NCBI RefSeq assembly: GCF_900105925.1
Contig: NZ_LT629791.1
Coordinates: 1,798,001-1,862,000 of the forward strand
Direction of reading: 5' to 3'
DNA: 64,000 bases
Origin: Jiangella alkaliphila
GTDB taxonomy: Bacteria; Actinomycetota; Actinomycetes; Jiangellales; Jiangellaceae
A program made the translations under genes and the position numbers. Every line of letters starts with the position of its first letter. Position 1 is the first letter of the stretch. The notes beneath the pieces are model-generated. The model had not been told where the DNA came from. It made no database searches and was given only the letters and a program-made list of their open reading frames with translations. Positions 22,472 to 44,656 of the stretch are shown piece by piece.

Positions 22472-23891
22472 GGCGTGTTGAATCTTTCGTGTAAGGCCGG
22501 GTGGGCCAGGATTGGTCCGGGCGTGTTTGCGTCGTGGCCGCGAGAGGATTCTTTGTGTCGGAGCAGGAGAAGGTTGTCGATTCCTCGGATGAGGCAGCTC
22601 GTCGGTTGGCGGCGGTGTTGTCGGATGAGGCGATTGATAATCTGTTGGCGGATGCCGAGTCGTCCGGGACACCGGTTGATGGTGTTCATGGGTTGTTGAA
22701 TCGGTTGACGTCGAGAGTTCTGGAGCGGGCGTTGGAGACCGAGATGACCGATCATCTCGGTTATGAGCCCGGTGATCCGGCTGGGCGCGGATCGGGGAAC
22801 TCCCGGAATGGGCGTTCGGCCAAGACGGTCGCGACGACGGCCGGCCCGGTGAACGTGACCGTGCCACGAGACCGGAATTCGACATTCGCCCCGCAGATCG
22901 TGCCGAAACACTCCCGGCGTGTCGGCGCGATCGAGGACATCATTCTGTCGTTGTATGCGCGCGGGCTATCGACCCGGGAGATCGAGGCGCACCTGAAGGA
23001 GATCTACGACATCAACACGTCGCCGGCGCTGATCTCCAAGATCACCGACGTGGTCGTGGACGAGATCACACTGTGGCAGAACCGGCCGGTCGACGAGGTC
23101 TACCCGATCGTCTACGTCGACGCCATCCGGATCCGGGTCCGCGACCGCGGCTCGGTCACGCTGAAGTCCGCACACCTGGTCGTGGGCGTCGACGTCGACG
23201 GGTTGAAGGACGTGCTGGGGATCTGGATCGCCGCGGAGGAGGGCGCGAAGTTCTGGGCGCACGTGCTCACGCAGCTGCGCAACCGGGGCCTGCGCGACGT
23301 CCTCATCCTGTGCTGCGACGGGCTGACCGGGCTGCCTGACGCCGCGCGCAGCGTGTTCGACAAGGTCACCGTGCAAACCTGTGTGGTGCACGTGATCCGC
23401 AATACGATGCGGTTCATCTCCTACGGCGACCGGAAAAAGGTCGCCACGGCGATGCGTCACATCTACACCGCTCCCGGCGTCGCGGCGGCCGAGATCGCGT
23501 TGAAAGAATTCGAGCAGAATTTCGGGCAGCAGTATCCCGGCGCGATCGAGGTGTGGAAGAATGCGTGGAACGAGTTCATCCCGTTCCTGGATTACCCGGC
23601 CGAGCTACGCCGAATCGTCTACACGACGAACCTGATCGAATCAATCAACTACCAGCTGCGGAAGATCACCAAGACTCGCGGCCACTTCCCCGACGATGAC
23701 GCCGCCATGAAGCTGCTCTTTCTCGGGATCCGTAACATCAGCCGGAAACGAGGAGGAGCATCAGGCACCGGAACCCATGGATGGAAGAAAGCACTCAACT
23801 TCCTGGTCGTGGAATTCCCCGGAAGACTCACCTAGAAAAGTCACATCAAGGTAAAGGTTTGCCCTGTCTTACACGAAAAACTTGACAGGCC
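22472..23891 (+). mobile_element. IS256-family insertion sequence, about 1.42 kb
   Basis: Terminal inverted repeats of 24 bases (22472-22495 and 23868-23891, 19 matches, sharing TTTCGTGTAAG/CTTACACGAAA) enclose a single intact transposase gene. Flanking bases do not form an 8-9 base target duplication, which suggests a deletion or recombination after insertion. The length fits the family. Confidence 0.85.
22555..23835 (+). CDS. IS256-family transposase
   Basis: A 426-residue DDE transposase of the mutator-like IS256 family that cuts and joins the ends of its own element. Family marks are the HLGYEPGDPAGRGSGNSRNG segment, RRVGAIEDIILSLYARGLST, the first catalytic Asp in YPIVYVDAIRIRVR, the second in LCCDGLTG, the CVVHVIRN C/D-(2)-H motif and a downstream Glu near NEFIPF. 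The start is a GTG with AGAGGA upstream. The ORF is complete, so the element may still be active. Codon use is less GC-biased at the 5' end than in neighbouring genes, consistent with recent arrival. Confidence 0.92.
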   Translation: MSEQEKVVDSSDEAARRLAAVLSDEAIDNLLADAESSGTPVDGVHGLLNRLTSRVLERALETEMTDHLGYEPGDPAGRGSGNSRNGRSAKTVATTAGPVNVTVPRDRNSTFAPQIVPKHSRRVGAIEDIILSLYARGLSTREIEAHLKEIYDINTSPALISKITDVVVDEITLWQNRPVDEVYPIVYVDAIRIRVRDRGSVTLKSAHLVVGVDVDGLKDVLGIWIAAEEGAKFWAHVLTQLRNRGLRDVLILCCDGLTGLPDAARSVFDKVTVQTCVVHVIRNTMRFISYGDRKKVATAMRHIYTAPGVAAAEIALKEFEQNFGQQYPGAIEVWKNAWNEFIPFLDYPAELRRIVYTTNLIESINYQLRKITKTRGHFPDDDAAMKLLFLGIRNISRKRGGASGTGTHGWKKALNFLVVEFPGRLT

Positions 23892-28734: not shown

Positions 28735-29865
28735 ATGACGAACTCCACCGAGATCCGCCCCTTCCGCATCGAGATCTCCGACGCCGACCTCGCCGACCTG
28801 CGCGACCGGCTGGCCGCCACCCGCTGGCCGGTCGAGGTCGCGGGCACCGGCTGGGAGCGCGGCGTCCCGTCCGGCTATCTCCAGGAGCTGGCCGCGTACT
28901 GGCGCGACGGGTTCGACTGGCGCGCGCAGGAGCGGGCGCTCAACGCGTACCCGCAGTTCACCACCGCGATCGACGGCGCGAACGTGCACTTCCTGCACCT
29001 GCGCTCGGACAACGAGGACGCGCTGCCGCTGCTGCTCCTGCACGGCTGGCCCGGCTCGTTCCTCGAGTTCCTCGAGCTGGTCCCGCTGCTCACCGACGAG
29101 TTCCACCTGGTCATCCCGTCGCTGCCGGGCTACGGGTTCTCCGGCCCGGTCACCGAGACCGGCTGGACCGACGGCCGGTCCGCGGCCGTTCTGGCCGAGC
29201 TGATGGACCGGCTCGGCTACGACCGCTACGGCGTCCAGGGCGGCGACGTCAGCGGGTTCATCGGCCCGGAGGTCGGCCGTGTCGCGCCGGACCACGTCGT
29301 CGGCGTGCACATCAACGCGTTCGTGACGTTCCCGTCCGGCGACCCGGCCGACTTCGAGGGCCTCACCGAGTCCGAGCAGCGGCGGATGGCCGTGTTCGAG
29401 AACTTCCAGCAGGAGCTCGGCGGCTACCTGCAGCTGCAGGGCACCCGGCCGCAGACGGTGTCGTACGGCCTGACCGACTCGCCCACGGCGCAGCTGGCCT
29501 GGATCGTGGAGAAGTTCAAGGACTGGACCGACCCGGCCGGTGAGCTGCCCGAGGACGCCGTCGACCGCGACCGGCTGCTCACCAACGTCAGCCTCTACTG
29601 GTTCACGAACACCGCGAGCTCCACCGCGCACACCTACTACGAGCGGTTCCACGACGCGGCCGGCTGGGCGCCGCGCCAGCGGTCCACCGTCCCGACCGCC
29701 GTCGCGAACTTCACCACGGACATCGCGATCCGCCGGTTCGCCGAGCGCGCCGACACGATCGTGCGCTGGACCGAGTTCGACCGTGGCGGCCACTTCGCCG
29801 CGCTGGAGGCGCCCGACCTGCTCGCCGACGACGTCCGCGCGTTCTTCGCCGGCCTGAACAACTGA
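28735..29865 (+). CDS. Epoxide hydrolase (EHN-type), first of a tandem pair
   Basis: A 376-residue alpha/beta hydrolase with an N-terminal EHN domain ([20 protein letters not shown], then TRWPVEV). It has the oxyanion motif [12 protein letters not shown], the nucleophile Asp in VQGGDVSGF (about residues 161-169) and the catalytic His in [10 protein letters not shown] near the C-terminus. It hydrolyses an epoxide to a vicinal diol through an Asp-ester intermediate. The substrate is unknown. The next gene is a close paralogue 12 bases downstream. The mycofactocin locus lies about 3 kb away, whose dehydrogenases could oxidise the alcohol product. Confidence 0.87.
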
Positions 29866-29877
29866 GGAGACGAGATC

Positions 29878-31023
29878 ATGACCGACATTCGCCCGTTCCG
29901 CATCGACATCTCCGACGCCGACCTGGCCGGCCTGCGCGACCGGCTGGCCCGCACCCGCTGGCCGGTCGAGGTCGCCGGCGCCGGCTGGGAGCGCGGCGTC
30001 CCGCTCCCGTACCTGAAGGAGCTGACCGAGTACTGGCGCGACGGGTTCGACTGGCGGGCCGCCGAAGCCGAGCTGAACGCGCACCCGCAGTTCGTCACCA
30101 CCGTCGACGGCCAGGACCTGCACTTCCTGCACGTCCGGTCGGCCAACCCGGACGCGACGCCGCTGCTGCTGGTGCACGGCTGGCCCAGCTCGGTCGTCGA
30201 GTTCCTCGACCTGATCCCGCTGCTCACCGACGAGTTCCATCTGGTGATCCCGTCGCTGCCCGGATTCGGCTTCTCGCCGCTGTCCGGCCCCGGCTGGGGC
30301 AACCTGTTCCGGGTGGCCGGCGCGGTCGCCGAGCTGATGAGCCGGCTCGGCTACGAGCGGTTCGCGGCGCAGGGCGGCGACCTCGGCGCCGGCGTGGTCG
30401 GCATGCTGGCGATGCTGCACCCCGGCCGCGTCATCGGCACGCATGTCAACGGCCCGTCGCCGTACCCGTTCGGACCGCCGGCCGAGCTGGACGGGCTGTC
30501 CGACGCCGAGAAGGTGCGGGCCGAGCGGTTCAACACGTTCCGCGAGGACGGCATCGGCTACCTCGCTCTGCAGGCCACCCGGCCGCAGACGCTGGCGTAC
30601 GGACTGGCCGACTCGCCGGTCGAGCTGCTGGCCTGGATCGCGGAGAAGTTCCGCGAGTGGACCGACCCGGCCGCCGAGCTGCCCGAGGACGCCGTCGGCC
30701 GCGACCGGCTGCTCACCAACGTCAGCCTCTACTGGTTCACCGGCACCGGCGCGACCGCCGCGCACGTCCTCTACGAGGGGATGCAGGCATACAAGCAGTT
30801 CATGGCCAGCGCGGGTGAGCAGGAGTGGAGCGCCGAGGCGCCCACGCCGCCGCCCGGTGCGGTCGCCGTCTTCGCCGCCGACAGCTCCATCCGCCACCTC
30901 GTCGACCCGATGGGCACGGTGGTGCGCTGGACCGAGTTCGATCGCGGCGGCCACTTCGCCGCGCTGGAGGCGCCCGCCCTGCTCGCCGCCGACGTCAAGG
31001 AGTTCTTCGCGACCCTGCGGTGA
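29878..31023 (+). CDS. Epoxide hydrolase (EHN-type), second of a tandem pair
   Basis: A 381-residue paralogue of the preceding gene, with near-identical EHN start ([20 protein letters not shown]). It carries [13 protein letters not shown], the nucleophile Asp in [11 protein letters not shown] and the His in [10 protein letters not shown]. The cap region differs ([32 protein letters not shown]), which suggests a different substrate. A GAGGAGACGAGATC leader gives a usable ribosome site. It is co-transcribed with the first copy and converges on the mftF-like gene behind a long hairpin. Confidence 0.87.
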
Positions 31024-31040: not shown

Positions 31041-31135
31041 GGAGGGGTCGGGGGATGTGGAGCCGGCGTCAAGAGCGCCCTTGGCATGCTTCACCGCCGC
31101 GTAGCGGAGCCGGCGCAGCATCCCCCGACCCCTCC
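31041..31135. terminator. Long-armed inverted repeat between convergent genes
   Basis: GGAGGGGTCGGGGGATG (31041-31057) is perfectly repeated in inverse at 31119-31135, with a 61-base loop that includes a second GGAGCCGGCG pair. It sits over the 3' ends of the epoxide hydrolase and glycosyltransferase genes and would serve as a bidirectional terminator. Confidence 0.55.
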
Positions 31136-32601
31136 GTCCGCCGCACCTCGGCCACGAGGTCGTCCGCCGACCCGACCCGCAGCCGCCAGCCCAGATCGGG
31201 GCGGAGCGGGTCGAGCTCGCCGGTGGCCAGCGCGCCTGACCACATGCCCCAGCCGTACGCGGCGTCGTCGAGGCGCCGGGTGAGCAGCCAGCGGACGGGG
31301 TCGAGGTCCGGGCGCTGCCGCCGCCACTCCAGGACCGACGGGACGACGGCGGCCGCGGCGAGGGCGGGGCGCAGCCGGGGGACGGCGACGCCGGCGGCCA
31401 GCGCCGCGGGCCACCACGTCCGCACGACGGCGTCCGCGGCGGCCTCGCCGGCCCGCAGCGTGCCGCCGCCGGCCAGCCGGACCGCCGTCCGGACCGGGTC
31501 GGGCACCACGCCGCGCAGTTCGGCCGCCAGCAGCGCGCAGGCCGTCGCGGTGATCGCGGCCGCGGCGACCGGCCGCCGCAGCGCCACCGCGGCCCACGCA
31601 GCGGCCGTCCACGGCGACATCGCCAGCGGCCGGGCCGCACCCGGGTGCCGCCGGGCCAGCGGTGCGGCGGTCCGCCCGTAGTAGGCGCGGCGGCCGAGGA
31701 AGGCCCGCGGTGCGGTCAGGTGCTCATGCGCGACCCGGGCGGCCGGCTCGTACCGCACCTGCCGGCCGGCCGACGTCAGCCGCCAGACGAGGTCGACGTC
31801 CTCGCCACCGCGCAGCGAGGTGTCGAACCCGGGGAAGTGCGCGGCCCGCACCAGCACCGTCGCCGTCGGCACGAACGGGATGCGCCCGCCCGGCGTGACG
31901 AGACCGGGCAGGGCGCCGCGGTCGTACGGTGCGCGGTGCTCCTCGTAGCGGTCCAGCCAGCCGCGCCGGCCGGCCTCCAGCGCCACGACGCGGGGCGCGA
32001 CGGCGGCCACCTCGGGGTCGGCGAAGTGCGGCAGCAGCGCGGACAGCCAGCCCGCCGCCGGGACGCAGTCGGAGTCGACGAACGCCAGCACGTCGCCGGT
32101 CGCCACGGCCGCGCCGGCGTTGCGCGCGCCCGGCGCCCGCTGCCGCTCGTCCAGACGGACCAGCCGTGCCCCGCCCGCCGCGGCCACCGCGGCATGCGCG
32201 GCGGCGTCGGCGGACGCGTCGTCGACGACGATCACCTCGTGCACCGGCTCGCCCTCGGCGAGCGACCCGAGCGACCTGAGCGACGCCAGCGCCGTCAGCA
32301 GCCGGGCCAGCTGCCGCGGCCGGTCGCGCACGGGGATCACGACGCTCACCCGCGGCCACCCGGCCGCATCCGCGCGAACCGCCGGCGGCACCGGCAGCGC
32401 CAGCCCGGCCGCGACCAGCGCACGGGCCAGCACGCCGTCGTCCGGCCCGCTCACCCGCCGGCCCGCCAGCCACCCGTCCACCGTCGCCCGCTGCCGCCCG
32501 GACAGCGTCACCACCCGGAACGGCGTCCCGCCGAACAGCACGCCGCCGTCCAGCCAGGCACCGGGGTCCAGCGCGACCCCGAACCCGCCGGGCAGGGTCA
32601 C
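31069..32601 (-). CDS. Second mycofactocin-type family 2 glycosyltransferase (MftF paralogue)
   Basis: A 510-residue membrane-associated GT2 enzyme. It opens LPGGFGVALDPG with a small domain shared with MftF, then a GT-A fold with VSVVIPVRDRP, VIVVDDASAD, FVDSDCVPAAGWL and the GGEDVDLVWRL acid/base segment. Several hydrophobic helices follow in the C-terminal third. MftF adds beta-1,4-glucose units to the mycofactocin core; this paralogue is coupled to mftR (GTGA overlap) rather than to mftE. It may add a different sugar, start the chain or act under different conditions. The last ~25 residues overlap the terminator hairpin and look non-conserved. Confidence 0.8.
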   Translation of the reverse strand: MTLPGGFGVALDPGAWLDGGVLFGGTPFRVVTLSGRQRATVDGWLAGRRVSGPDDGVLARALVAAGLALPVPPAVRADAAGWPRVSVVIPVRDRPRQLARLLTALASLRSLGSLAEGEPVHEVIVVDDASADAAAHAAVAAAGGARLVRLDERQRAPGARNAGAAVATGDVLAFVDSDCVPAAGWLSALLPHFADPEVAAVAPRVVALEAGRRGWLDRYEEHRAPYDRGALPGLVTPGGRIPFVPTATVLVRAAHFPGFDTSLRGGEDVDLVWRLTSAGRQVRYEPAARVAHEHLTAPRAFLGRRAYYGRTAAPLARRHPGAARPLAMSPWTAAAWAAVALRRPVAAAAITATACALLAAELRGVVPDPVRTAVRLAGGGTLRAGEAAADAVVRTWWPAALAAGVAVPRLRPALAAAAVVPSVLEWRRQRPDLDPVRWLLTRRLDDAAYGWGMWSGALATGELDPLRPDLGWRLRVGSADDLVAEVRRTEGSGDAAPAPLRGGEACQGRS

Positions 32602-33242
32602 GTCGCGAACCGCTCGCCCAGCATCCGCAGCGCCGACTCGAGCAGCTCGGTGAGGTCGGCGTCCTCGTGCACCAGCCACTGCTCGTAGGCCGACAGCGCG
32701 ATGCCGAGCATGGTCCACGCCAGCGCCTGCGGTTCCAGGGTGTCCGCCGGCACCTCGAGCCGCCGGGCGGCGTACTCGGCCACGACGTCGCGCCACGCCT
32801 GGAACTTCAGCGTCGAGTGCGCGAGCAGCGCCGGGACGCCCAGCAGCAGCCGCATGCGCTGCCGGTGCCACGGCACCTCCTCGGGCGGGATGCGGTTGAA
32901 CTCGATCACCGACGCGCAGACGGCGTCCATCAGCGGGAGGTCGTCGGGGAGGCCGTCGAGGTACGCGCGCATGCGGTCCAGCTGGGCCTCGAAGTCGCCC
33001 CACGGCAGGTCGTTCTTCGAGGCGAAGTAGCGGAAGAACGTGCGCCGCCCGATGCCGGCCGCGGCCGCGATGTCGTCGACGGTGGTGTCCTCGAAGCCGC
33101 GCTCGGCGAACAGCGTCAGCGCGACGTGGCTGAGCTCCGCCTGAGTGGTGGACGGACGCCGTCCCAGCCGAGGCGCACCGCTCTCACCTGCAGGGGAACC
33201 GTCGTCGGTGGGCAAAGTCGGGTCACCCCTTCCATTCGGCAC
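32598..33242 (-). CDS. mftR: Mycofactocin system TetR-family regulator
   Basis: A 214-residue TetR regulator with the HTH segment ELSHVALTLFAERGFEDTTV followed by IAAAAGIGRRTFFRYFASKNDL and a C-terminal ligand domain. Its position divergent to mftA and the motif RIPPEEVPWHRQRM fit MftR. In mycobacteria, MftR represses the mft operon and responds to long-chain acyl-CoAs; the same is inferred here. Its stop overlaps the start of the second glycosyltransferase. The 54-base gap to mftA presumably holds its operator. Confidence 0.88.
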   Translation of the reverse strand: MPNGRGDPTLPTDDGSPAGESGAPRLGRRPSTTQAELSHVALTLFAERGFEDTTVDDIAAAAGIGRRTFFRYFASKNDLPWGDFEAQLDRMRAYLDGLPDDLPLMDAVCASVIEFNRIPPEEVPWHRQRMRLLLGVPALLAHSTLKFQAWRDVVAEYAARRLEVPADTLEPQALAWTMLGIALSAYEQWLVHEDADLTELLESALRMLGERFAT

Positions 33243-33294
33243 TGGGTGCCATTAGTATCCGAACCATACCGCCAACTCGACCTGAAGGAGCATG
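33238..33294. promoter_or_regulatory. Putative mftA promoter and MftR operator region
   Basis: GGCACTGGGTGCC (33238-33250) is a short palindrome spanning the mftR start. TAGTAT (33253-33258) fits a -10 box for mftA, and AAGGAG at 33285-33290 is the mftA ribosome site, 6 bases before the ATG. The assignment of the palindrome to MftR is inference. Confidence 0.4.
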
Positions 33295-33296
33295 TC

Positions 33297-33401
33297 ATGA
33301 GCCAGACGGATCAGACAGCGGTGACCGAGCCTGACGACCTCGTCGAGGACGACTCTCTGGTGGAAGAGGTCTCCATCGACGGCATGTGCGGCGTGTACTG
33401 A
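33297..33401 (+). CDS. mftA: Mycofactocin precursor peptide MftA
   Basis: A 34-residue peptide with an acidic leader (about residues 1-24) and the invariant C-terminal core IDGMCGVY. MftC decarboxylates and cross-links the terminal Val-Tyr pair, MftE releases the Gly-Val-Tyr-derived core, and MftD and MftF finish the redox cofactor. A preceding ATG at 33292 reads into an immediate stop, so the second ATG is used, with AAGGAG at ideal spacing. It is the first gene of the plus-strand mycofactocin operon. Confidence 0.97.
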   Translation: MSQTDQTAVTEPDDLVEDDSLVEEVSIDGMCGVY

Positions 33402-33409
33402 GCACCGCC

Positions 33410-33685
33410 GTGCCCGCCATCGACCTGGACCGGGCCTTCGACCTGCACCCGCAGGTCGCGGTGCGGCCCGAGCCGTTCGGGGCGCTGCTGTACCACTTCG
33501 GCACCCGCCGGCTCTCCTTCCTCAAGGACCGCACGCTGCTGGCCGTCGTGCAGTCGCTCGCGGCCGAACCGACGGCGCGGGCGGCCTGTTCCGCGGCCGG
33601 TGTCGGCGGCGCCGACCTGCCGCGGTACCAGAAGGCGCTCGACGTCCTGGTGCAGTCCCAGATGGTCGTCGAGAGGACCCCATGA
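33410..33685 (+). CDS. mftB: Mycofactocin RiPP recognition chaperone MftB
   Basis: A 91-residue PqqD-like winged-helix protein that binds the MftA leader and presents it to MftC. It contains the family motifs DLHPQVAVRPEPFGALLYHFG and RRLSFLKDRTLLAVV. I start it at a GTG 8 bases after mftA because the homologous region begins there (VPAIDLDRAF); a GTG at 33386 overlapping mftA is an alternative. The stop overlaps the mftC start (ATGA), so B and C are produced together. Confidence 0.92.
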   Translation: MPAIDLDRAFDLHPQVAVRPEPFGALLYHFGTRRLSFLKDRTLLAVVQSLAAEPTARAACSAAGVGGADLPRYQKALDVLVQSQMVVERTP

Positions 33686-36673: not shown

Positions 36674-37486
36674 ATGGGCAAGCTCGAGGGCAAGGTCGCC
36701 TTCATCACCGGCGCGGCGCGCGGCCAGGGCCGCAGTCACGCGGTCCGGCTGGCGCAGGAGGGCGCCGACATCATCGCCGTCGACATCTGCAAGCAGATCG
36801 ACTCGGTCGCGTACCCGATGTCGACGCCGGAGGACCTGGCCGAGACCGTGAAGGAGGTCGAGGCGCTGGACCGGCGCATCGTCGCCACCCAGGCCGACGT
36901 CCGCGACCGCGACGGGCTGCAGGCCGCGTTCGACGACGGTGTCGCGCAGCTCGGTGGCGTCGACATCGTGCTGGCCAACGCCGGCATCGCGCCGATGGGC
37001 GTGAACGTCCTGCCGAACGAGTGGGACGACGTCGTCGCCGTCAACCTCACCGGCGTCTACAACACCCTCGAGGTGGCCAAGCAGGCGCTGATCGAGCGCG
37101 GCGGCGGCGCCGTCGTCATCACCAGCTCGACCGCCGGGCTCAACGGCATCGGCGGCAGCCAGCCCGGCGGGCTCGGCTACACCGCCTCGAAGCACGGCGT
37201 CGTCGGGCTGATGCGCTCGTACGCCAACGTGCTGGCCGAGCACTCCATCAGGGTCAACACCGTCCACCCGACCGGCGTCAACACGCCGATGGTCGTCAAC
37301 GACGTCATGCAGGAGTTCCTGCAGAACGACCCGAGCCTGTCCAACGCGATGCTGAACGCGCTGCCGGTGCCGATGCTCGAGGCCGTGGACATCTCCAACG
37401 CGATCCTGTGGCTGGTCTCCGACGACGCCCGCTACGTCACCGGGGTGACGCTGCCCGTCGACGCCGGCTACACGAACAAGAAGTGA
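36674..37486 (+). CDS. Mycofactocin-coupled short-chain dehydrogenase, copy 3
   Basis: A 270-residue paralogue, 11 bases after copy 2. The N-terminal half is almost identical to copy 2 ([39 protein letters not shown]). The C-terminal half diverges: [25 protein letters not shown] around the active site and a loop [19 protein letters not shown]. This suggests a changed substrate pocket on a conserved cofactor-binding half. The C-terminus ends NKK. Confidence 0.92.
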
Positions 37487-37496
37487 GGGGCTGACG

Positions 37497-38333
37497 ATGG
37501 CCGGACGGGTCGAGGGCAAGGTCGCGTTCATCACCGGTGCGGCGCGCGGTCAGGGCCGCAGCCACGCGGTGCGGCTGGCGCAGGAGGGCGCCGACATCAT
37601 CGCCGTCGACCTCTGCGACGAGGTGCCCGGCCTGCCCTACCCGCCGGCCACCGAGGAGGACCTCGCCGAGACGGTGAAGGAGGTCGAGGCCCTGGACCGG
37701 CGCATCGTCGCGTCGAAGACGGACGTCCGCGACCTCGCCGCGCTTCAGGCGGCCGTCGACGACGGCGTCGCACAGCTCGGCCGGGTCGACATCGTCAGCG
37801 CGAACGCCGGCATCGGCACCCAGCCGCACCCGTCGCACGAGCTGTCCGAAGAGCTCTGGCGCGACATGATCGACATCAACCTCACCGGGGTGTGGCACAC
37901 CACGAAGGTGGCGATCCCGCACCTGATCGAGCAGGGCGACGGCGGGTCGATCGTCATCACCAGCTCCGCGGCCGGGCTGCAGGCGTACCAGAACATCGCC
38001 CACTACGTGTCGGCCAAGCACGGCGTGGTCGGCCTCATGCGCACGCTGGCGGTGGAGCTGGCGCCGCACTTCATCCGGGTCAACAGCATCCACCCGACGC
38101 AGGTCGACACGCCGATGATCCAGAACGAGGGCACCTACCGGCTGTTCCGGCCGGATCTTCCGAACCCGACCCGCGACGACTTCGTGCCCGCGTCGCAGGC
38201 GATGAACGCGCTGCCGATCCCGTGGGTCAAGCCGGTGGACATCAGCAACGCGCTGCTGTTCCTGGCGTCGGACGAGGCGCGGTACATCACCGGGGTGGCG
38301 CTGCCGGTCGACGCCGGCGCGGTCGTGAAGTGA
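37497..38333 (+). CDS. Mycofactocin-coupled short-chain dehydrogenase, copy 4
   Basis: A 278-residue paralogue, 10 bases after copy 3. It starts [11 protein letters not shown] and has the insertion [16 protein letters not shown], active-site TSSAAGLQAY with YVSAKHG, and the loop MIQNEGTYRLFRPDLPNP. The last motif is shared with copy 5, so copies 4 and 5 are likely the most recent duplicates in the array. GAGGGGCTGACG supplies a weak ribosome site. Confidence 0.92.
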   Translation: MAGRVEGKVAFITGAARGQGRSHAVRLAQEGADIIAVDLCDEVPGLPYPPATEEDLAETVKEVEALDRRIVASKTDVRDLAALQAAVDDGVAQLGRVDIVSANAGIGTQPHPSHELSEELWRDMIDINLTGVWHTTKVAIPHLIEQGDGGSIVITSSAAGLQAYQNIAHYVSAKHGVVGLMRTLAVELAPHFIRVNSIHPTQVDTPMIQNEGTYRLFRPDLPNPTRDDFVPASQAMNALPIPWVKPVDISNALLFLASDEARYITGVALPVDAGAVVK

Positions 38334-38354: not shown

Positions 38355-39197
38355 ATGGCGGGACGGGTCGAGGGCAAGGTCGCGTTCATCACCGGCGCCG
38401 CGCGTGGGCAGGGCCGCAGCCACGCGGTGCGGCTGGCGCAGGAGGGCGCTGACATCATCGCGGTGGACATCTGCGAGGACGTCCCCGGCGTCACCCGGTT
38501 CTACCAGGGCGCGACGGAGGCCGACCTCGCCGAGACGGTCGAGCAGGTCGAGGCGCTGGACCGGCGCATCGTCGCGACCAAGGCCGACGTGCGCGACTAC
38601 GAGGCACTCAAGGAGGCACTGGACGACGGCGTGGCCCAGCTCGGGCGCGTCGACATCGTCAGCGCCAACGCCGGCATCTTCATCTTCGGCGACCAGTCGC
38701 ACCTGGTGTCCGAGCAGGACTGGCGCGACGTCACCGACATCAACCAGACCGGCGTCTGGCACACCTGCAAGGCGGCGATCCCGCACCTGATCGAGCAGGG
38801 CACCGGCGGGTCGATCGTCATCACCAGCTCGACCGCCGGGCTGAAGGGCACGCCGAACGTCGCGCCGTACACGGCGTCGAAGCACGCGGTCGTCGGCCTG
38901 ATGCGCACGCTGGCGCTGGAGCTGGCGCCGCACTCGATCCGGGTCAACACCGTCCACCCGACCAGCGTCGACACCGGGATGATCCAGAACGAGGCCACCT
39001 ACCGGCTGTTCCTGCCCGACGCGCAGCACCCGACCCGCGACGACGCCGAGCCGATCTTCCGGACCATCAACGCGCTGCCCGTGCCGTGGGTGGAACCGGT
39101 CGACATCAGCAACGCCGTGCTGTTCCTCGCCTCGGACGAGTCCCGCTACGTCACCGGCCTCGAGCTGAAGGTCGACGCCGGCTACACGATCAAGTAG
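38355..39197 (+). CDS. Mycofactocin-coupled short-chain dehydrogenase, copy 5
   Basis: A 280-residue paralogue, 21 bases after copy 4 with GAGAGAGGAGCTGAGCC as ribosome site. It has [46 protein letters not shown] with YTASKHA, and the loop MIQNEATYRLFLPDAQHP. It has a short extra stretch (VTRFYQGATEADL) in the region after strand two. It ends 8 bases before the MoxR ATPase gene, linking the dehydrogenase array to the MoxR-VWA pair. Confidence 0.92.
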   Translation: MAGRVEGKVAFITGAARGQGRSHAVRLAQEGADIIAVDICEDVPGVTRFYQGATEADLAETVEQVEALDRRIVATKADVRDYEALKEALDDGVAQLGRVDIVSANAGIFIFGDQSHLVSEQDWRDVTDINQTGVWHTCKAAIPHLIEQGTGGSIVITSSTAGLKGTPNVAPYTASKHAVVGLMRTLALELAPHSIRVNTVHPTSVDTGMIQNEATYRLFLPDAQHPTRDDAEPIFRTINALPVPWVEPVDISNAVLFLASDESRYVTGLELKVDAGYTIK

Positions 39198-39205
39198 GAG
39201 GTCAC

Positions 39206-40120
39206 ATGACGGCGCTGACGGAGGTCCGCGACCGCGTCCGCCGGCACCTGGTGGGCCGCGACCACGAGCTGACCGTGCTGCTGGCCGCCGTCGCCGCCGG
39301 GCGGGACATCATCCTGGAGGGACCGCCCGGCACCAGCAAGAGCACGCTGCTGCGGGCCATCACCGCCGAGTGGGGCATCCCGCTGGTGTTCGTCGAGGGC
39401 AACGCCGACCTCACGCCGGCGAAGCTGGTCGGCCACCACAACCCGGCACGGGTGCTGCGCGAGGACTACAGCCCGGAGAACTTCGTCGACGGGCCGCTGC
39501 TGGAGGCGATGCGCGGCGGCGGCTTCCTGTACGTCGAGGAGTTCAACCGGGCGCCGGAGGACACGCTGAACACGCTGCTCACGGCGATGGCGGAGCGCGA
39601 GATCGCGGTGCCTCGGGTCGGCCGGGTGGCGGCGCTGCCGACGTTCCGGGTGATCGCGTCGATGAACCCGTTCGACAACGTCGGCACCACCCGGCTGTCG
39701 ACCAGCGTGCACGACCGGCTCTGCCGGCTGGCGATCGGCTACCAGGACGCCGAGGCCGAGCGGGGCATCGTCGCGCTGCGGGCGCCGCTGCCCGACGTCG
39801 ACCCGCTGCTGTACGAGCGGCTGGTGGCCGACGCCGTCGCCGTCACCCGGGCGACCCGCGAGCACGAGGACCTCAGGCAGGGCAGCAGTGTGCGTGGCGC
39901 GATCGACCTGACGCTGGTGGCGGGCTCGCTGCTGGGGTTCGCCGAGGTCGGATCGGCGTCGGACCCGCGCTACCCGGACGTCGTCTTCGACGCGATGGTC
40001 GTGGCGCTGTCCGGGCGGATCTTCCTCGACGAGACCGTCGAGACGACGCCCGAGCGGGTGCTGCGGATGATCTGGGAGGACCACTTCATCCTCCAGCCGG
40101 CGGCGGCCGCGCCGGGTTGA
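39206..40120 (+). CDS. MoxR-family AAA+ ATPase within the mycofactocin operon
   Basis: A 304-residue AAA+ ATPase of the MoxR/CoxD type. It has Walker A GPPGTSKST (about residues 39-47), a Walker B-like GGGFLYVEEFNRAPED, and sensor region FRVIASMNPFDNVG with STSVHDRL. MoxR ATPases work with VWA proteins to remodel or insert metal into target enzymes, as CoxD-CoxE do for the copper-molybdenum centre of CO dehydrogenase. TAGGAGG directly precedes the ATG. It is followed by its VWA partner. No obvious metalloenzyme target lies in the operon; the dehydrogenases, MftC or MftE are candidates by position only. Confidence 0.9.
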   Translation: MTALTEVRDRVRRHLVGRDHELTVLLAAVAAGRDIILEGPPGTSKSTLLRAITAEWGIPLVFVEGNADLTPAKLVGHHNPARVLREDYSPENFVDGPLLEAMRGGGFLYVEEFNRAPEDTLNTLLTAMAEREIAVPRVGRVAALPTFRVIASMNPFDNVGTTRLSTSVHDRLCRLAIGYQDAEAERGIVALRAPLPDVDPLLYERLVADAVAVTRATREHEDLRQGSSVRGAIDLTLVAGSLLGFAEVGSASDPRYPDVVFDAMVVALSGRIFLDETVETTPERVLRMIWEDHFILQPAAAAPG

Positions 40121-40144
40121 AGGACGGTCGAGGCGTCGTCGCCC

Positions 40145-41104
40145 GTGCGGCGGCGGGCCACGTCGCCGGTTCGGGAGCTGCGGCCGTTGCGGCGGCGGCC
40201 CAAGCACCTGGACGCCGACCCCGTCCTGCATGACGTGTCGTCGTCCGGCGGCGGCGGGAGCCTGGTGGCGCCGGGCGGGCTCCGGCCGCCGGGTCCGCGG
40301 CGGGTGCCGTCGGGCTCGGCCTCGCCCGGCATGACGGACGAGGCGGCGACCCTGCTCGCGACGCCCCCGGCCGACGCCGAGCCGGACCCGGAGGTGCTGC
40401 GCCGGGCCCGGCAGATCGCCGCCCGGCTGGCGGTGCCGCGGCCGCGTCGCGACGTCACCGCCCGGCGCGGCGTCGGCGAGCTGGCCAGCGTCCGCTACCG
40501 CGGCGGCTCCGATGACATCGACCTGGACCGGACGCTCGAGCAGCTGGTCGAGCACCCTGTCCCGGAGGACGACGACATCATCGTGCGCGAGCGCGTGCAG
40601 GCCCGGCGGTCGGTGGCGCTGCTGGTGGACGTGTCCGGGTCGATGCGCGGCGAGCGGGTCCGGACGGCGGCGGCCACTTTGGGTGCGCTGGCCGCCGAGC
40701 TGTCGGCCGACGACGTCGCCGCGATCGCGTTCTGGTCCGACGCCGCCGTGCTGGCCCACCTGGGCGAGCGGGTGGCGCCGCAGCGGCTGCTCGACACGCT
40801 GCTGCGGATCCCCGCCAAGGGCCTCACCAACGTCGCGTTCCCGCTGCAGGTGGCCGCCCGCGAGCTGGCCCGGGCGCCGGCCCGCGACGCGCGGGTGGTG
40901 CTGCTGTCCGACTGCGTGCACAACGCCGGCCCCGACCCGCGCCCGTTCGCCGCCCGGCTGCCACGGCTGGACGTCCTGCTGGACACGTCCGGCGAACACG
41001 ACACCGACCTCGGCCGCGACCTCGCCCGGCTCGGCCGCGGGCGGCTGTTCCGGGTCGGCGGCTATCGTGAGGTGGCACCGGCACTGGGGGAGATGTTCGC
41101 GTGA
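40145..41104 (+). CDS. VWA-domain (CoxE-like) partner of the MoxR ATPase
   Basis: A 319-residue protein. The N-terminal ~150 residues are basic then Gly/Pro-rich with a helical segment (PEVLRRARQIAARLAV). The C-terminal half is a von Willebrand A domain with the MIDAS motif LLVDVSGSM (Asp162, Ser164, Ser166), the Thr in KGLTNVAFPL and LLSDCVHNAG. It should bind a divalent metal and a protein partner. The gene overlaps mftE by four bases (GTGA), so translation of the cofactor protease is coupled to it. The start is a GTG 24 bases after the ATPase stop; a later start is possible because the first ~60 residues look unstructured. Confidence 0.85.
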   Translation: MRRRATSPVRELRPLRRRPKHLDADPVLHDVSSSGGGGSLVAPGGLRPPGPRRVPSGSASPGMTDEAATLLATPPADAEPDPEVLRRARQIAARLAVPRPRRDVTARRGVGELASVRYRGGSDDIDLDRTLEQLVEHPVPEDDDIIVRERVQARRSVALLVDVSGSMRGERVRTAAATLGALAAELSADDVAAIAFWSDAAVLAHLGERVAPQRLLDTLLRIPAKGLTNVAFPLQVAARELARAPARDARVVLLSDCVHNAGPDPRPFAARLPRLDVLLDTSGEHDTDLGRDLARLGRGRLFRVGGYREVAPALGEMFA

Positions 41105-41775
41105 GGCTTCTGGGCGACCTGCGCTGGCCGTCGGTCCCTGCCGACGCGATCCTGGCGCTGCCGCTGGGGTCGACCGAGCAGCACGGGCCGCACCTGCCGT
41201 TGTCGACGGACGCCGACGTGGCTTGGGCGCTGTGTTCCGCTCTGGCGTCGGTGCGCCCCGAGGTCGTGGTAGCGCCGCCGTTGCCGTACGGCGCGAGCGG
41301 CGAGCACCAGGACTTCCCCGGCACGGTGTCCATCGGCACCCCGGCGCTGACCCAGGTGCTGGTCGAGCTCGGCCGCTCGGCGTCGGCGACGTTCCCGCGG
41401 CTGCTGGTCGTATCCGGGCACGGCGGCAACCTGGCGGCCGTGCGTTCGGCGCTGGCCACGCTGACGGCGGAGTCGCGCGACGTGCTGGCCTGGTTCCCGC
41501 GCTGGGACGGCGACGCGCACGCCGGTTTCGTCGAGACGTCGTTGCAGCTGCACCTGTCCGCCGGGCGGGTGGCGCTGTCGTCGGCCGAGGCGGGTGCGGT
41601 GGAGCCGCTGGCCTCGCTGATGCCGGCGCTGCGGTCCGGCGGGGTGCGGTCGGTCAGTCCCAACGGCGTGCTCGGCGACCCGGCCGGCGCGTCCGCGGAG
41701 GCCGGCCGGACCATCTTCGACGGGCTGGTCGCCGACCTGGTCACCGCGGTGGCCGCCTGGGTGAGCCGCCCGTGA
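41101..41775 (+). CDS. mftE: Mycofactocin precursor peptide peptidase MftE
   Basis: A 224-residue creatininase-family metallopeptidase that cuts the modified MftA before the last Gly-Val-Tyr. Metal ligands are visible in GSTEQHGPHLPLSTD (Glu26, His28, Asp37), GEH (His69) and VSGHGGN (His107). The GTG start overlaps the stop of the VWA gene and its own stop overlaps the mftF start, so three genes are translationally chained. Size fits the family. Confidence 0.95.
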   Translation: MRLLGDLRWPSVPADAILALPLGSTEQHGPHLPLSTDADVAWALCSALASVRPEVVVAPPLPYGASGEHQDFPGTVSIGTPALTQVLVELGRSASATFPRLLVVSGHGGNLAAVRSALATLTAESRDVLAWFPRWDGDAHAGFVETSLQLHLSAGRVALSSAEAGAVEPLASLMPALRSGGVRSVSPNGVLGDPAGASAEAGRTIFDGLVADLVTAVAAWVSRP

Positions 41776-43229
41776 GCCCTGCGTTGCCCGCCGGGTTCGG
41801 GGTGGTGCTGGACCGGCACACCCGCGTCCTCGACGGCGGCCGCGTGCTGCTCGGCGGCTCGCCGCGGCGGGCGCTGCGATTGTCGCCGGCCGGGGCGGCG
41901 GCGTTCGCGCGGCTGCGTCGGGACGGGTACGTGACGGACCAGCGCACGGCGTGGCTGGCCCGTCGACTGGTCGACGCCGGAGTGGCGCACCCGCGCCCTC
42001 CGGTCGCCGCTGGTGCCGCTGCGGGCGTGACGGTGATCGTCCCGGTCCGCGACCGGCCGGCTGCCCTCGACCGCTGCCTCGCCGCCCTGACCGGCGCCGA
42101 CGTGTCGTTGGGAACCGACGTGGCGGCCGGTGCCCACGCTCGGGCCGGTGCCAGCGTGCTCGTGGTCGACGACGGCTCGGCCGACCCGGCGGCGATCGCC
42201 GAGATCGCCGCCCGCCACGGCGCCAGGTTGATCCGGCGCCCGGAGTCCGGCGGACCCGCCGCCGCCCGCAACACCGGCCTCGCCGCCGCCTCCCAACGGG
42301 GCGGTGTGGCGGAGCTGGTGGCGTTCGTGGACAGCGACTGCGTGCCGTCGCCGGGGTGGCTCGACCGGCTGGCCGGGCACTTCGCCGACCCCGCCGTTGT
42401 GGCCGTCGCGCCGCGGATCGTGCCGGTGGTGGCGCCGGAGGCGGGCCGAGTACTCGGCGCGTTCGCGGCCGCCCGGTCGCCGCTGGACCTCGGGCCGGAC
42501 GAGGCGCTCGTCCAGCCCGGCGGCCGGGTGTCGTACGTGCCGACGGCGGCGCTGCTGGTCCGGCGGCCGGCGCTGGACGGGTTCGACGAGGCGTTGCGCT
42601 ACGGCGAGGACGTCGACGCGGTGTGGCGGCTGGTGGGGTCGGGCGGGCGGGTCCGCTACGACCCGTCGGTCACGGTCGCGCACGCCGAGCCGGCGACCTG
42701 GCCGGCCTGGCTGCGCCGCCGCCACCACTACGGCACGTCCGCCGGTCCGCTGGCCCGCCGCCACCCGGACCGCCTCGCCCCCTTGGTCGTCGCGCCCTGG
42801 CCGGCCGCGGTGACCGCGCTGCTGCTGGCCCGGCGGCCGCTGCTGGCGACGGCGACCGGCGCGGTCGCGGCGGCCCGCCTCGCCGTCCGCCTGCGCCGCG
42901 ACGGCCTCCCACCGTCGGCCGCCGCCCCGATGATCGCCGAGGCCACCGCCGCGACGCTCACCAGCACCGGCCGCGCCGTCACCCAGTTGGCCCTCCCGGC
43001 CGCGGTCGCTCTAACCCGGGGCCGGCGCCGCCGGCTCGTCACACTGGCCGCCCTGGTCGCCGCACCCGCGCTGCGCGACTGGCTGCGGCTGCGCCCGTCA
43101 CTGGACCCGCTGCGCTGGACCCTCGCCAGCACCGCCGACGACCTCGCGTACGGCACCGGCGTCTGGCGCGGCGCCGTCCGGGCCCGCACGCTCCGCCCGC
43201 TCCTTCCCCGCCGCTCACGACCACGTTGA
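41772..43229 (+). CDS. mftF: Mycofactocin glycosyltransferase MftF
   Basis: A 485-residue GT2 enzyme that builds the oligoglucose chain on the mycofactocin core. It has the MftF N-terminal segment LPAGFGVVLDRHTRVLDGG with LLGGSPRRALRLSPAG. The catalytic domain contains VTVIVPVRDRP, SVLVVDDGSADP, FVDSDCVPSPGWL and YGEDVDAVWRL. Hydrophobic helices lie in the C-terminal third. The GTG start overlaps the mftE stop. It is the last plus-strand gene, ending at a long hairpin shared with the convergent mftD gene. Confidence 0.93.
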   Translation: MSPALPAGFGVVLDRHTRVLDGGRVLLGGSPRRALRLSPAGAAAFARLRRDGYVTDQRTAWLARRLVDAGVAHPRPPVAAGAAAGVTVIVPVRDRPAALDRCLAALTGADVSLGTDVAAGAHARAGASVLVVDDGSADPAAIAEIAARHGARLIRRPESGGPAAARNTGLAAASQRGGVAELVAFVDSDCVPSPGWLDRLAGHFADPAVVAVAPRIVPVVAPEAGRVLGAFAAARSPLDLGPDEALVQPGGRVSYVPTAALLVRRPALDGFDEALRYGEDVDAVWRLVGSGGRVRYDPSVTVAHAEPATWPAWLRRRHHYGTSAGPLARRHPDRLAPLVVAPWPAAVTALLLARRPLLATATGAVAAARLAVRLRRDGLPPSAAAPMIAEATAATLTSTGRAVTQLALPAAVALTRGRRRRLVTLAALVAAPALRDWLRLRPSLDPLRWTLASTADDLAYGTGVWRGAVRARTLRPLLPRRSRPR

Positions 43230-43311: not shown

Positions 43312-44490
43312 TCAGGCGCCGAAGGTGCGGTGGAAGTCGCGGGGGATGACGAGGTCGTCGGGGGTGAGGTCGGCGACCGAGGACTTGCCGAGGCCGCGCA
43401 GGGCGGAGTCGATGCCCCCGGAGAGGATGTCGAGCACGTTCTCGACGCCGGCCTGGCCGTTCGCCGCCAGCCCCCAGAGGTAGGCGCGGCCGATCATGAC
43501 CGCCTTGGCGCCGAGTGCGAGCGACTTGACGACGTCGCTGCCGCGCCGGATGCCGCCGTCCTGGACGACGTCGATCTGCGAGCCGACCGCGTCGACGACG
43601 GAACGCAAGGAGCGGACGGCGGCCGGAGTGCCGTCGAGGTTGTTGCCGCCGTGGTTGGAGACCGAGATGGCGCTCACCCCGGCGTCGACCGCGCGCTTGG
43701 CGTCGTCGACCCGCATGACGCCCTTGAGCATGAACGGGCCGTCCCATTGCGAGCGCAGCCAGGCGACGTCGTCCCAGGTGGCGGGCGGGGTCTGGATCCA
43801 CTGGCCGTAGGCGCCGAAGAACGTCGGCGCGACGCCGTCGGCGCCCTCGAGGTTGGGGGTGGTGAGGTCGGGCAGCTTGCCGGCCCGCAGGTAGCGCAGC
43901 AGCCAGCCGGGGTGCGGCAGCACCTGCGGCGCGAACCGCGCCATGGTCTTGAGGTCCAGCCGTTCCGGGATGGACGGGCTGCCCCAGTCGCGGCCGTTGC
44001 TGAACGACCAGTCCAGCGTGAGGATCAGCCCGACGGCGCCGGCGCGGCGGGCGCGGTCGATGATGCGCAGGATCTCGTCGCGGCTGCCCAGCCAGTAGAT
44101 CTGGAAGAACGCCTTGGGGTTGGCCTTGACGACGTCCTCGACGGAGCGGCTGGCGAACGAGCTCAGCCCCATGGCGGTGCCGCGGTTGGCGCCGGCCCGG
44201 GCGACGGCCACCTCGCCGTCGGGGTGGACGGCCTGGACGCCGGTCGGCGACAGGATCACCGGCAGCGCGAGGGACTGGTCCATGACGTGCGTGGACAGGT
44301 CGCGCTTGTCAGACGTGGCGGCGACGTGCGGGGCGAACCCGAGCTCGGTGAACGCGGCGAGGTTGTCCTGGAGCGTGAGCCCCTTCTCGGAGCCGGCCAC
44401 CAGCGCTCCGTACACCGATTTCGGCAGTTGCCGGCAGGCCCGCCGCTCGGCTTCGGCCACGGTCTCGAACCACTTGTTCCTGCCGAACAT
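43312..44490 (-). CDS. mftD: Pre-mycofactocin synthase MftD (FMN-dependent alpha-hydroxy acid dehydrogenase family)
   Basis: A 392-residue FMN enzyme of the L-lactate dehydrogenase family. MftD deaminates the MftE product to give the redox-active alpha-keto amide of pre-mycofactocin. Motifs include LPVILSPTGVQAVHPDGE, FFQIYWLGSRDEI, the FMN/substrate region AISVSNHGGNNLDGTPA and VVQDGGIRRGSDVVKSLALGA. I start it at MFGRNKWF with GAGGTGAC upstream; the frame extends 32 codons further without family support. It is transcribed against the rest of the operon, so it needs its own promoter. Confidence 0.94.
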   Translation of the reverse strand: MFGRNKWFETVAEAERRACRQLPKSVYGALVAGSEKGLTLQDNLAAFTELGFAPHVAATSDKRDLSTHVMDQSLALPVILSPTGVQAVHPDGEVAVARAGANRGTAMGLSSFASRSVEDVVKANPKAFFQIYWLGSRDEILRIIDRARRAGAVGLILTLDWSFSNGRDWGSPSIPERLDLKTMARFAPQVLPHPGWLLRYLRAGKLPDLTTPNLEGADGVAPTFFGAYGQWIQTPPATWDDVAWLRSQWDGPFMLKGVMRVDDAKRAVDAGVSAISVSNHGGNNLDGTPAAVRSLRSVVDAVGSQIDVVQDGGIRRGSDVVKSLALGAKAVMIGRAYLWGLAANGQAGVENVLDILSGGIDSALRGLGKSSVADLTPDDLVIPRDFHRTFGA

Positions 44491-44656
44491 CGTCACCTCT
44501 GAGCTCGCTGGTGGACACGTCGGTGTGCCGCTGCTCCCAGAATAATGGCACTGAGGGCCAAAATGAAGAGCGATCGGATCCAGCAAACAACTCTGGTACG
44601 CTAAGTGAACGAAAGGTGAACAACACCTGACTCAAGAGTGGCCGAAGGGAGCGCAC

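What the first reader, a model, noticed from the sequence alone, without database searches (positions are those of the whole stretch)
31069..33242. Second MftF-type glycosyltransferase paired with mftR
Besides the usual mftF after mftE, a second GT2 protein with the same N-terminal segment and C-terminal helices overlaps the mftR stop. Two glycosyltransferases suggest a longer, branched or differently capped mycofactocin glycan, or a switch between two forms.
Basis: partly seen in the sequence, partly recalled or inferred. Interest (0 to 1): 0.65.

Follow-up and report, generated by a model that had tools for sequence, protein, structure and literature searches.

The report
Second mycofactocin glycosyltransferase in Jiangella
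These soil bacteria carry two old, distinct versions of the enzyme that puts a sugar chain on the redox cofactor mycofactocin, one at each end of a single gene cluster, which makes it likely but not shown that their cofactor carries a more complex or differently controlled sugar chain.

Summary
Window 31069-32601 (-) encodes a 510-residue MftF-type glycosyltransferase (F2) whose start overlaps the mftR stop by 4 nt. The usual MftF (F1, 41772-43229 +) overlaps mftE in the same way. Both pass NCBI's curated MftF cut-off (400 and 426 bits against 280), the only two in the genome that do. There is one mftC, so one cofactor core. All 7 Jiangella genomes with the cluster show both genes (5 complete pairs, 2 with one gene cut by a contig end); the other 5 Jiangella have neither. 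A sister genus has one pair. Elsewhere two copies are rare. F1 and F2 are not a recent duplication: they fall in two well-separated clades, and joining them is rejected (AU p 0.0025). F1 appears to have come with mftE, while mftR groups with a different lineage, so the locus looks like a mosaic. Both genes are under purifying selection and keep the GT2 motifs; Jiangella F2 alone has lost the GP of the GPxxARN loop. Best reading: two active glycosyltransferases share the work on one mycofactocin glycan. Isoenzymes under different expression remain possible. No chemistry was tested.

The parts
31069..32601 (-). F2: second MftF-type GT2 glycosyltransferase, 510 aa
   Evidence: TIGR03965 400.2 bits, cut-off 280; PF00535; model pLDDT 92.6
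32598..33242 (-). mftR, TetR-type regulator; stop overlaps F2 start by 4 nt; true start may be TTG 33215
   Evidence: TIGR03968 281 bits; overlap and start candidates
33235..33253 (.). MftR operator-like palindrome between the divergent operons (overlaps the first mftR start candidate)
   Evidence: one mismatch to the mycobacterial operator consensus of PMC8728441; GGCA-N5-TGCC core also in L121, L122, L126
33297..33401 (+). mftA precursor peptide, ends in IDGMCGVY
   Evidence: translation
33386..33685 (+). mftB
   Evidence: TIGR03967 109 bits
33682..34926 (+). mftC radical SAM maturase, the only one in the genome
   Evidence: TIGR03962 671 bits; one match in the genome
34948..35760 (+). mycofactocin-coupled SDR 1
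   Evidence: TIGR03971 385 bits
35832..36662 (+). SDR 2, same family by its start motif
   Evidence: translation; start
36674..37486 (+). SDR 3, same family by its start motif
   Evidence: translation; start
37497..38333 (+). SDR 4, same family by its start motif
   Evidence: translation; conserved in synteny
38355..39197 (+). SDR 5, same family by its start motif
   Evidence: translation; conserved in synteny in L121 and L122
39206..40120 (+). MoxR-like AAA+ ATPase
   Evidence: PF07728, PF07726, PF20030
40145..41104 (+). VWA / CoxE-like protein (start uncertain)
   Evidence: PF13519, PF05762
41101..41775 (+). mftE peptidase
   Evidence: TIGR03964 283 bits
41772..43229 (+). F1: the usual MftF, 485 aa; start overlaps mftE stop by 4 nt
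   Evidence: TIGR03965 425.8 bits; overlap; model pLDDT 93.3
43312..44586 (-). mftD, convergent to F1 (start uncertain)
   Evidence: TIGR03966 682 bits

Best explanation
F2 is a second, active MftF-type inverting glycosyltransferase that acts on the same mycofactocin as F1, and the two divide the work on its glycan: one (probably F1, partnered with MftE) starts or builds the beta-glucan on the cyclised dipeptide, the other extends it or adds a different sugar or linkage. Shown: family membership, intact GT2 motifs, one aglycon pathway per genome, two old clades joined in one locus, joint retention, purifying selection, coupling of F2 to mftR and of F1 to mftE. Inferred: catalysis by F2, its acceptor, division of labour, control of both operons by MftR at the shared site.
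For: Both pass the curated MftF cut-off. One mftC in each of the 7 cluster-bearing Jiangella and in G020, so two enzymes serve one core. Joint presence: 7 of 12 Jiangella have the cluster, with both genes (5 complete pairs; G005 has F1, and G002 has F2, cut at a contig end), and 5 of 12 have neither. Same order F2-mftR / mftA-B-C ... mftE-F1 in all five fetched Jiangella loci that reach across it (L118-L122, L122 cut inside F1), with a sister-genus locus (L126) alike. dN/dS median 0.25 (F2, 15 pairs) and 0.28 (F1, 10 pairs). F2 keeps the DD, DSD, GEDVD and YG motifs. The F2 model aligns well with glycan-making GT2 enzymes, including cellulose synthase (Z 21.3, rmsd 3.8, 290 residues) and hyaluronan synthase (Z 20.6, rmsd 3.4, 319 residues). 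MAG G399 also has one F1-clade and one F2-clade copy with one mftC.
Against: Genomes such as G278 and G078 carry a single MftF next to mftR, and most others a single one after mftE, so one MftF normally suffices and position says nothing about role. Two of three cluster-bearing genomes of the sister genus have one MftF only. F1 and F2 models do not differ in a way that names a role. No donor, acceptor or product was tested.
Confidence: 0.5

Rival explanations
1. Isoenzymes: F1 and F2 make the same beta-1,4-glucan, and differ only in expression. F2, tied to the regulator's own transcript, gives a basal level; F1 comes with the induced operon.
For: F2 is translationally coupled to mftR in the window and placed likewise in L118-L122; an operator-like site lies between the two operons; both models resemble the same synthases; single-MftF genomes use either position.
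Against: Two clades 43-47% identical kept side by side, never one without the other in 12 Jiangella, and Jiangella-specific changes in F2 at otherwise near-invariant sites are more than is needed for a dosage copy.
Confidence: 0.3
2. F2 is mainly structural: a weakly active or inactive MftF that holds the biosynthetic proteins together, while F1 does the glycosylation.
For: In M. smegmatis loss of MftF also abolishes the aglycons, which the authors read as a possible complex (PMC7491314 section 10). F2 of Jiangella lost the GP of the GPxxARN loop in 6 of 6 sequences.
Against: The GT2 motifs are intact, and chondroitin synthase, an active GT2, lacks the same Gly in its first domain (alignment).
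Confidence: 0.1
3. F2 glycosylates something other than mycofactocin and merely sits in the locus.
For: GT2 enzymes change substrates readily (general knowledge).
Against: F2 passes the MftF equivalog cut-off, occurs only in Jiangella that have the cluster, and its clade relative L039 lies next to mftR-A-B-C too.
Confidence: 0.08

Closest known systems
MftF of Mycolicibacterium smegmatis (MSMEG_1426; TIGR03965), PMC7491314
   Same: Same family, same locus partners, same GT2 motifs; F1 also has the same position after mftE.
   Different: That paper and its pathway model know one MftF per cluster; here there are two from different clades, the second in the mftR operon.
Single-MftF loci with MftF next to mftR (L160, L161, L114)
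   Same: MftF directly downstream of mftR, divergent from mftA-B-C.
   Different: Their MftF is in another clade and is the only one in G278 and G078; L114's genome was not searched.
GT2 synthases of alternating glycans: chondroitin synthase K4CP, hyaluronan synthase
   Same: GT2 fold shared with the F2 model.
   Different: One polypeptide makes the alternating polymer there; here two separate proteins, and alternation is not shown.

Membership tests
MftF, mycofactocin glycosyltransferase (TIGR03965) | Whole-protein score over the curated equivalog cut-off (280 bits) | tested here: met
   F2 400.2, F1 425.8 bits
MftF, mycofactocin glycosyltransferase (TIGR03965) | GT2 domain with nucleotide and metal motifs (DD, DxD, ED) | tested here: met
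   PF00535 in both; motifs in alignment
MftF, mycofactocin glycosyltransferase (TIGR03965) | Family-wide conserved columns kept (63 columns at 90% or more in 125 other sequences) | tested here: met
   F2 departs at 4 of 63, F1 at 3 of 63; two of the F2 departures are the GP of GPxxARN
MftF, mycofactocin glycosyltransferase (TIGR03965) | Genome and locus hold the rest of the mycofactocin pathway | tested here: met
   mftA, B, C, D, E, R in the window
MftF, mycofactocin glycosyltransferase (TIGR03965) | Attaches glucose to the mycofactocin precursor | not testable with these tools
   needs enzymology or metabolomics
Recent in-locus duplicate of MftF | F1 and F2 are each other's closest relatives | tested here: not met
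   separate clades; one clade rejected, lnL 78 lower, p-AU 0.0025
MftR regulon as in mycobacteria | Operator T-N2-GGCA-N5-TGCC-N2-A upstream of mftA | tested here: inconclusive
   33235-33253 matches with one mismatch, at the right place; but 5 such one-mismatch sites occur in the window against 1.2 expected, and binding cannot be tested here

The most novel reading that the evidence does not exclude
Jiangella and its kin make a mycofactocin with a composite glycan: F1 and F2 use different sugar donors or linkages (alternating, branched or capped) on one cofactor, so that the glycan is a clade-specific, evolvable part of mycofactocin put together by swapping glycosyltransferase modules between clusters.
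Probability: 0.25. Interest if true: 0.72.

Novelty: new variant of a known kind. Interest (0 to 1): 0.5.

Why it matters
Why mycofactocin carries a sugar chain at all is open. A lineage that keeps two different MftF enzymes for one core is a natural test of whether the glycan's make-up matters, and suggests that the glycosylation step is exchanged between clusters independently of the peptide chemistry. It also warns that 'one MftF per cluster' is not a safe rule.

Tried and rejected
Recent duplication: rejected by trees and AU test. Artefact of one assembly: rejected, the layout recurs in other Jiangella genomes. Pseudogene: rejected, open frames and dN/dS about 0.25.

N-terminal domain as a RiPP recognition element: the models show strands followed by helices and a 2025 paper reports such domains fused to PF00535 (PMC12710340, passages only), but a profile comparison with 71 MftB sequences gave nothing (1.3% probability). 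Left open.

Methyltransferase MftM (NF041255) as the alternative glycan-modifying step: none over the cut-off in the 8 two-MftF Jiangellaceae genomes searched, but the 5 other actinobacteria searched as a control did not reach it either, so this says nothing. The family accession was recalled and proved right.

Mosaic origin: mftE groups with the F1 clade's mftE (17-row set SH-aLRT 93; holding them together not rejected, p 0.64; with a Microbacteriaceae set rejected, p 0.0003, though that set is not a clade in the free tree and part of the penalty is its own; the earlier test, p 5.6e-05, has the same weakness). mftR groups with Microbacteriaceae-type clusters (SH-aLRT 96 for a 13-row set). For mftC it is only a leaning (Jiangella with Microbacteriaceae p 0.33, with the F1 set p 0.061). 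mftD gave no clear kin. So E-F1 as a block from another lineage is supported, the rest is suggested.

Against a simple picture: G399, the only genome outside Jiangellaceae found with one copy of each clade, is a metagenome bin with the two genes on different contigs, and none of the 6 other MftF-bearing genomes of its family (35 searched) has two. G020's F2 and mftC are each split between frames. The F2 relatives beyond L039 have only moderate support (84/89 and 81/57).

Rows dropped: from trees L038 (same as L118), L123 and L125 (fragments); one search used 66 of the 139 rows; searches used chosen subsets (67, 73, 63, and 47 and 39 rows); one search dropped hits with stops or too short. One search used wrong-frame SDR2 and SDR3 queries, so its 'SDR2' rows are noise; repeated without them.

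Literature: full-text searches listed no paper on two MftF proteins, on mycofactocin with MoxR as a cluster part, or on mycofactocin in Jiangella; subscription papers are mostly not held. PMC3023750, PMC7491314, PMC8728441, PMC11778925, PMC12710340 and PMC7470986 were seen as passages, PMC7491314 also in section 10; the rest only as listings.

Full report
What is there. The window lies in a 7.7 Mb genome whose closest named record is Jiangella muralis (F2 88% identical; the matching contig of G009, same genus, has the same length). A mycofactocin locus spans about 31.1-44.6 kb. On the - strand, mftR (32598-33242) is followed with a 4-nt overlap by F2 (31069-32601). On the + strand run mftA, mftB, mftC, five SDR genes, a MoxR-like ATPase, a VWA protein, mftE and F1 (41772-43229), F1 overlapping mftE by 4 nt; mftD faces F1. 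F1 and F2 score 425.8 and 400.2 bits against the MftF model with cut-off 280, and no other place in the genome reaches it. They are 45% identical to each other.

How widespread. In the family (22 genomes) 10 have a match at E<=1e-45. Of 12 Jiangella, 7 have MftF; 5 of these show two full copies, G005 has F1 cut at a contig end (90% over 257 residues) and G002 has F2 cut at a contig end (89% over 98 residues). The 5 others have none. In the sister genus g5, 3 of 5 genomes have MftF: G020 has two, G015 and G019 one. In a sample of 393 genomes of the class, 105 match, 95 of them outside the family; of these G338 and G058 have two distinct copies over the cut-off, far apart in the genome; G349 has a second match far below the cut-off, and G066's two have the same score at both ends of one contig, probably one gene assembled twice. 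A phylum sample (396 genomes) has 69 with a match at E<=1e-60, 18 of them already seen; of the 51 new ones only G501 has two, both below the cut-off. So a pair flanking one cluster was seen only in Jiangellaceae.

One core, two enzymes. A search for mftC in 14 genomes found exactly one in 13, among them the 7 cluster-bearing Jiangella, G020 and G399; G338 had none at E<=1e-80.

History. Trees of 139 and 66 MftF proteins put F1 (with G020's copy, 99/92) in a 17-row clade (100/99) with Jatrophihabitans, Patulibacter and others, and F2 (with G020's copy, 100/99) beside L039, an actinomycete bin (100/97). Forcing Jiangellaceae F1 and F2 together costs 78 log units, p-AU 0.0025. L039 has its MftF next to mftR-A-B-C like F2, and the same bin holds a second MftF on another contig that falls in the F1 clade (SH-aLRT 99). 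The mftE of Jiangella groups with the mftE of the F1 clade's members, while mftR groups with Microbacteriaceae-type clusters that carry SDR-MoxR-VWA too. G015 and G019 keep one MftF of a third kind, near Agromyces. I infer that in the Jiangella line mftE-F1 came in as a block and F2 was added behind mftR, in place of the single MftF seen in G015 and G019; the direction of these events is inference.

Is F2 functional? Six Jiangella sequences give dN/dS 0.18-0.30 for F2, close to F1 (0.21-0.32, five sequences) and mftE. Of 63 columns conserved in 125 other MftF, F2 departs at 4 and F1 at 3; the DD, DSD, GEDVD and YG motifs are kept. Notable is the loss of GP in GPxxARN in 6 of 6 Jiangella F2, but not in L039, and with only the Gly kept in G020. 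An active enzyme, chondroitin synthase, lacks that Gly too in its first domain, so I read it as altered specificity rather than loss (inference). AlphaFold models are confident (pLDDT 92.6 and 93.3), and both align with GalNAc transferases, cellulose synthase and hyaluronan synthase at Z about 19-22; the fold alone names no donor.

Control. PMC8728441 (passages) reports that MftR of M. smegmatis represses the cluster at a palindrome T-N2-GGCA-N5-TGCC-N2-A. The window has TTCGGCACTGGGTGCCATT at 33235-33253, one mismatch, in the gap between mftR-F2 and mftA; the core is intact in L121, L122 and the sister genus L126 and has one changed base in L118-L120. Four other one-mismatch sites lie elsewhere in the window. 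The site overlaps the first mftR start candidate, so it plausibly governs both operons (inferred).

Reading. PMC7491314 (passages and section 10) shows that one MftF is responsible for a beta-1,4-glucan of up to nine glucoses, and that losing it also abolishes the aglycons. Two old MftF lineages kept together for one core in Jiangella are best explained by a division of labour on the glycan (confidence 0.5), then by isoenzymes under different expression (0.3). No paper on this was found in the literature searched, but it is a variant of a known pathway. Interest 0.5.

Noticed in passing
39206-41104: A MoxR-like ATPase and a VWA/CoxE-like protein lie inside the mycofactocin operon. The same pair lies in 10 of 79 non-Jiangella loci, MoxR alone in 19 of 79, and neither in the 44 class-sample loci (loci of different reach). 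A search for mycofactocin with MoxR listed one paper, not on this. Possibly chaperones of mycofactocin-dependent dehydrogenases (guess).
   Followed up: partly
28735-31023: Two tandem epoxide-hydrolase genes (PF06441) end next to F2 and are conserved there in other Jiangella loci (both or one).
   Followed up: no
L129, L130 (G338): A genome with two MftF over the cut-off, 386 kb apart, but no mftC at E<=1e-80 and no other mft gene found beside either copy.
   Followed up: partly
L131, L132 (G058): Two MftF of different clades 3.5 Mb apart, with mftC at a third place: a second, separate two-MftF case with a scattered cluster.
   Followed up: partly
L126 (G020): Both mftC and the F2 copy are split between reading frames: assembly errors or decay.
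   Followed up: no
31069-32601 and 41772-43229, N-terminal about 75 residues: Predicted small domain of strands then helices in front of the GT2 domain; no sequence link to MftB; role unknown.
   Followed up: partly
22501-23835: ORF that reads like an IS256-type transposase (by eye, from memory), about 7 kb from the locus end.
   Followed up: no
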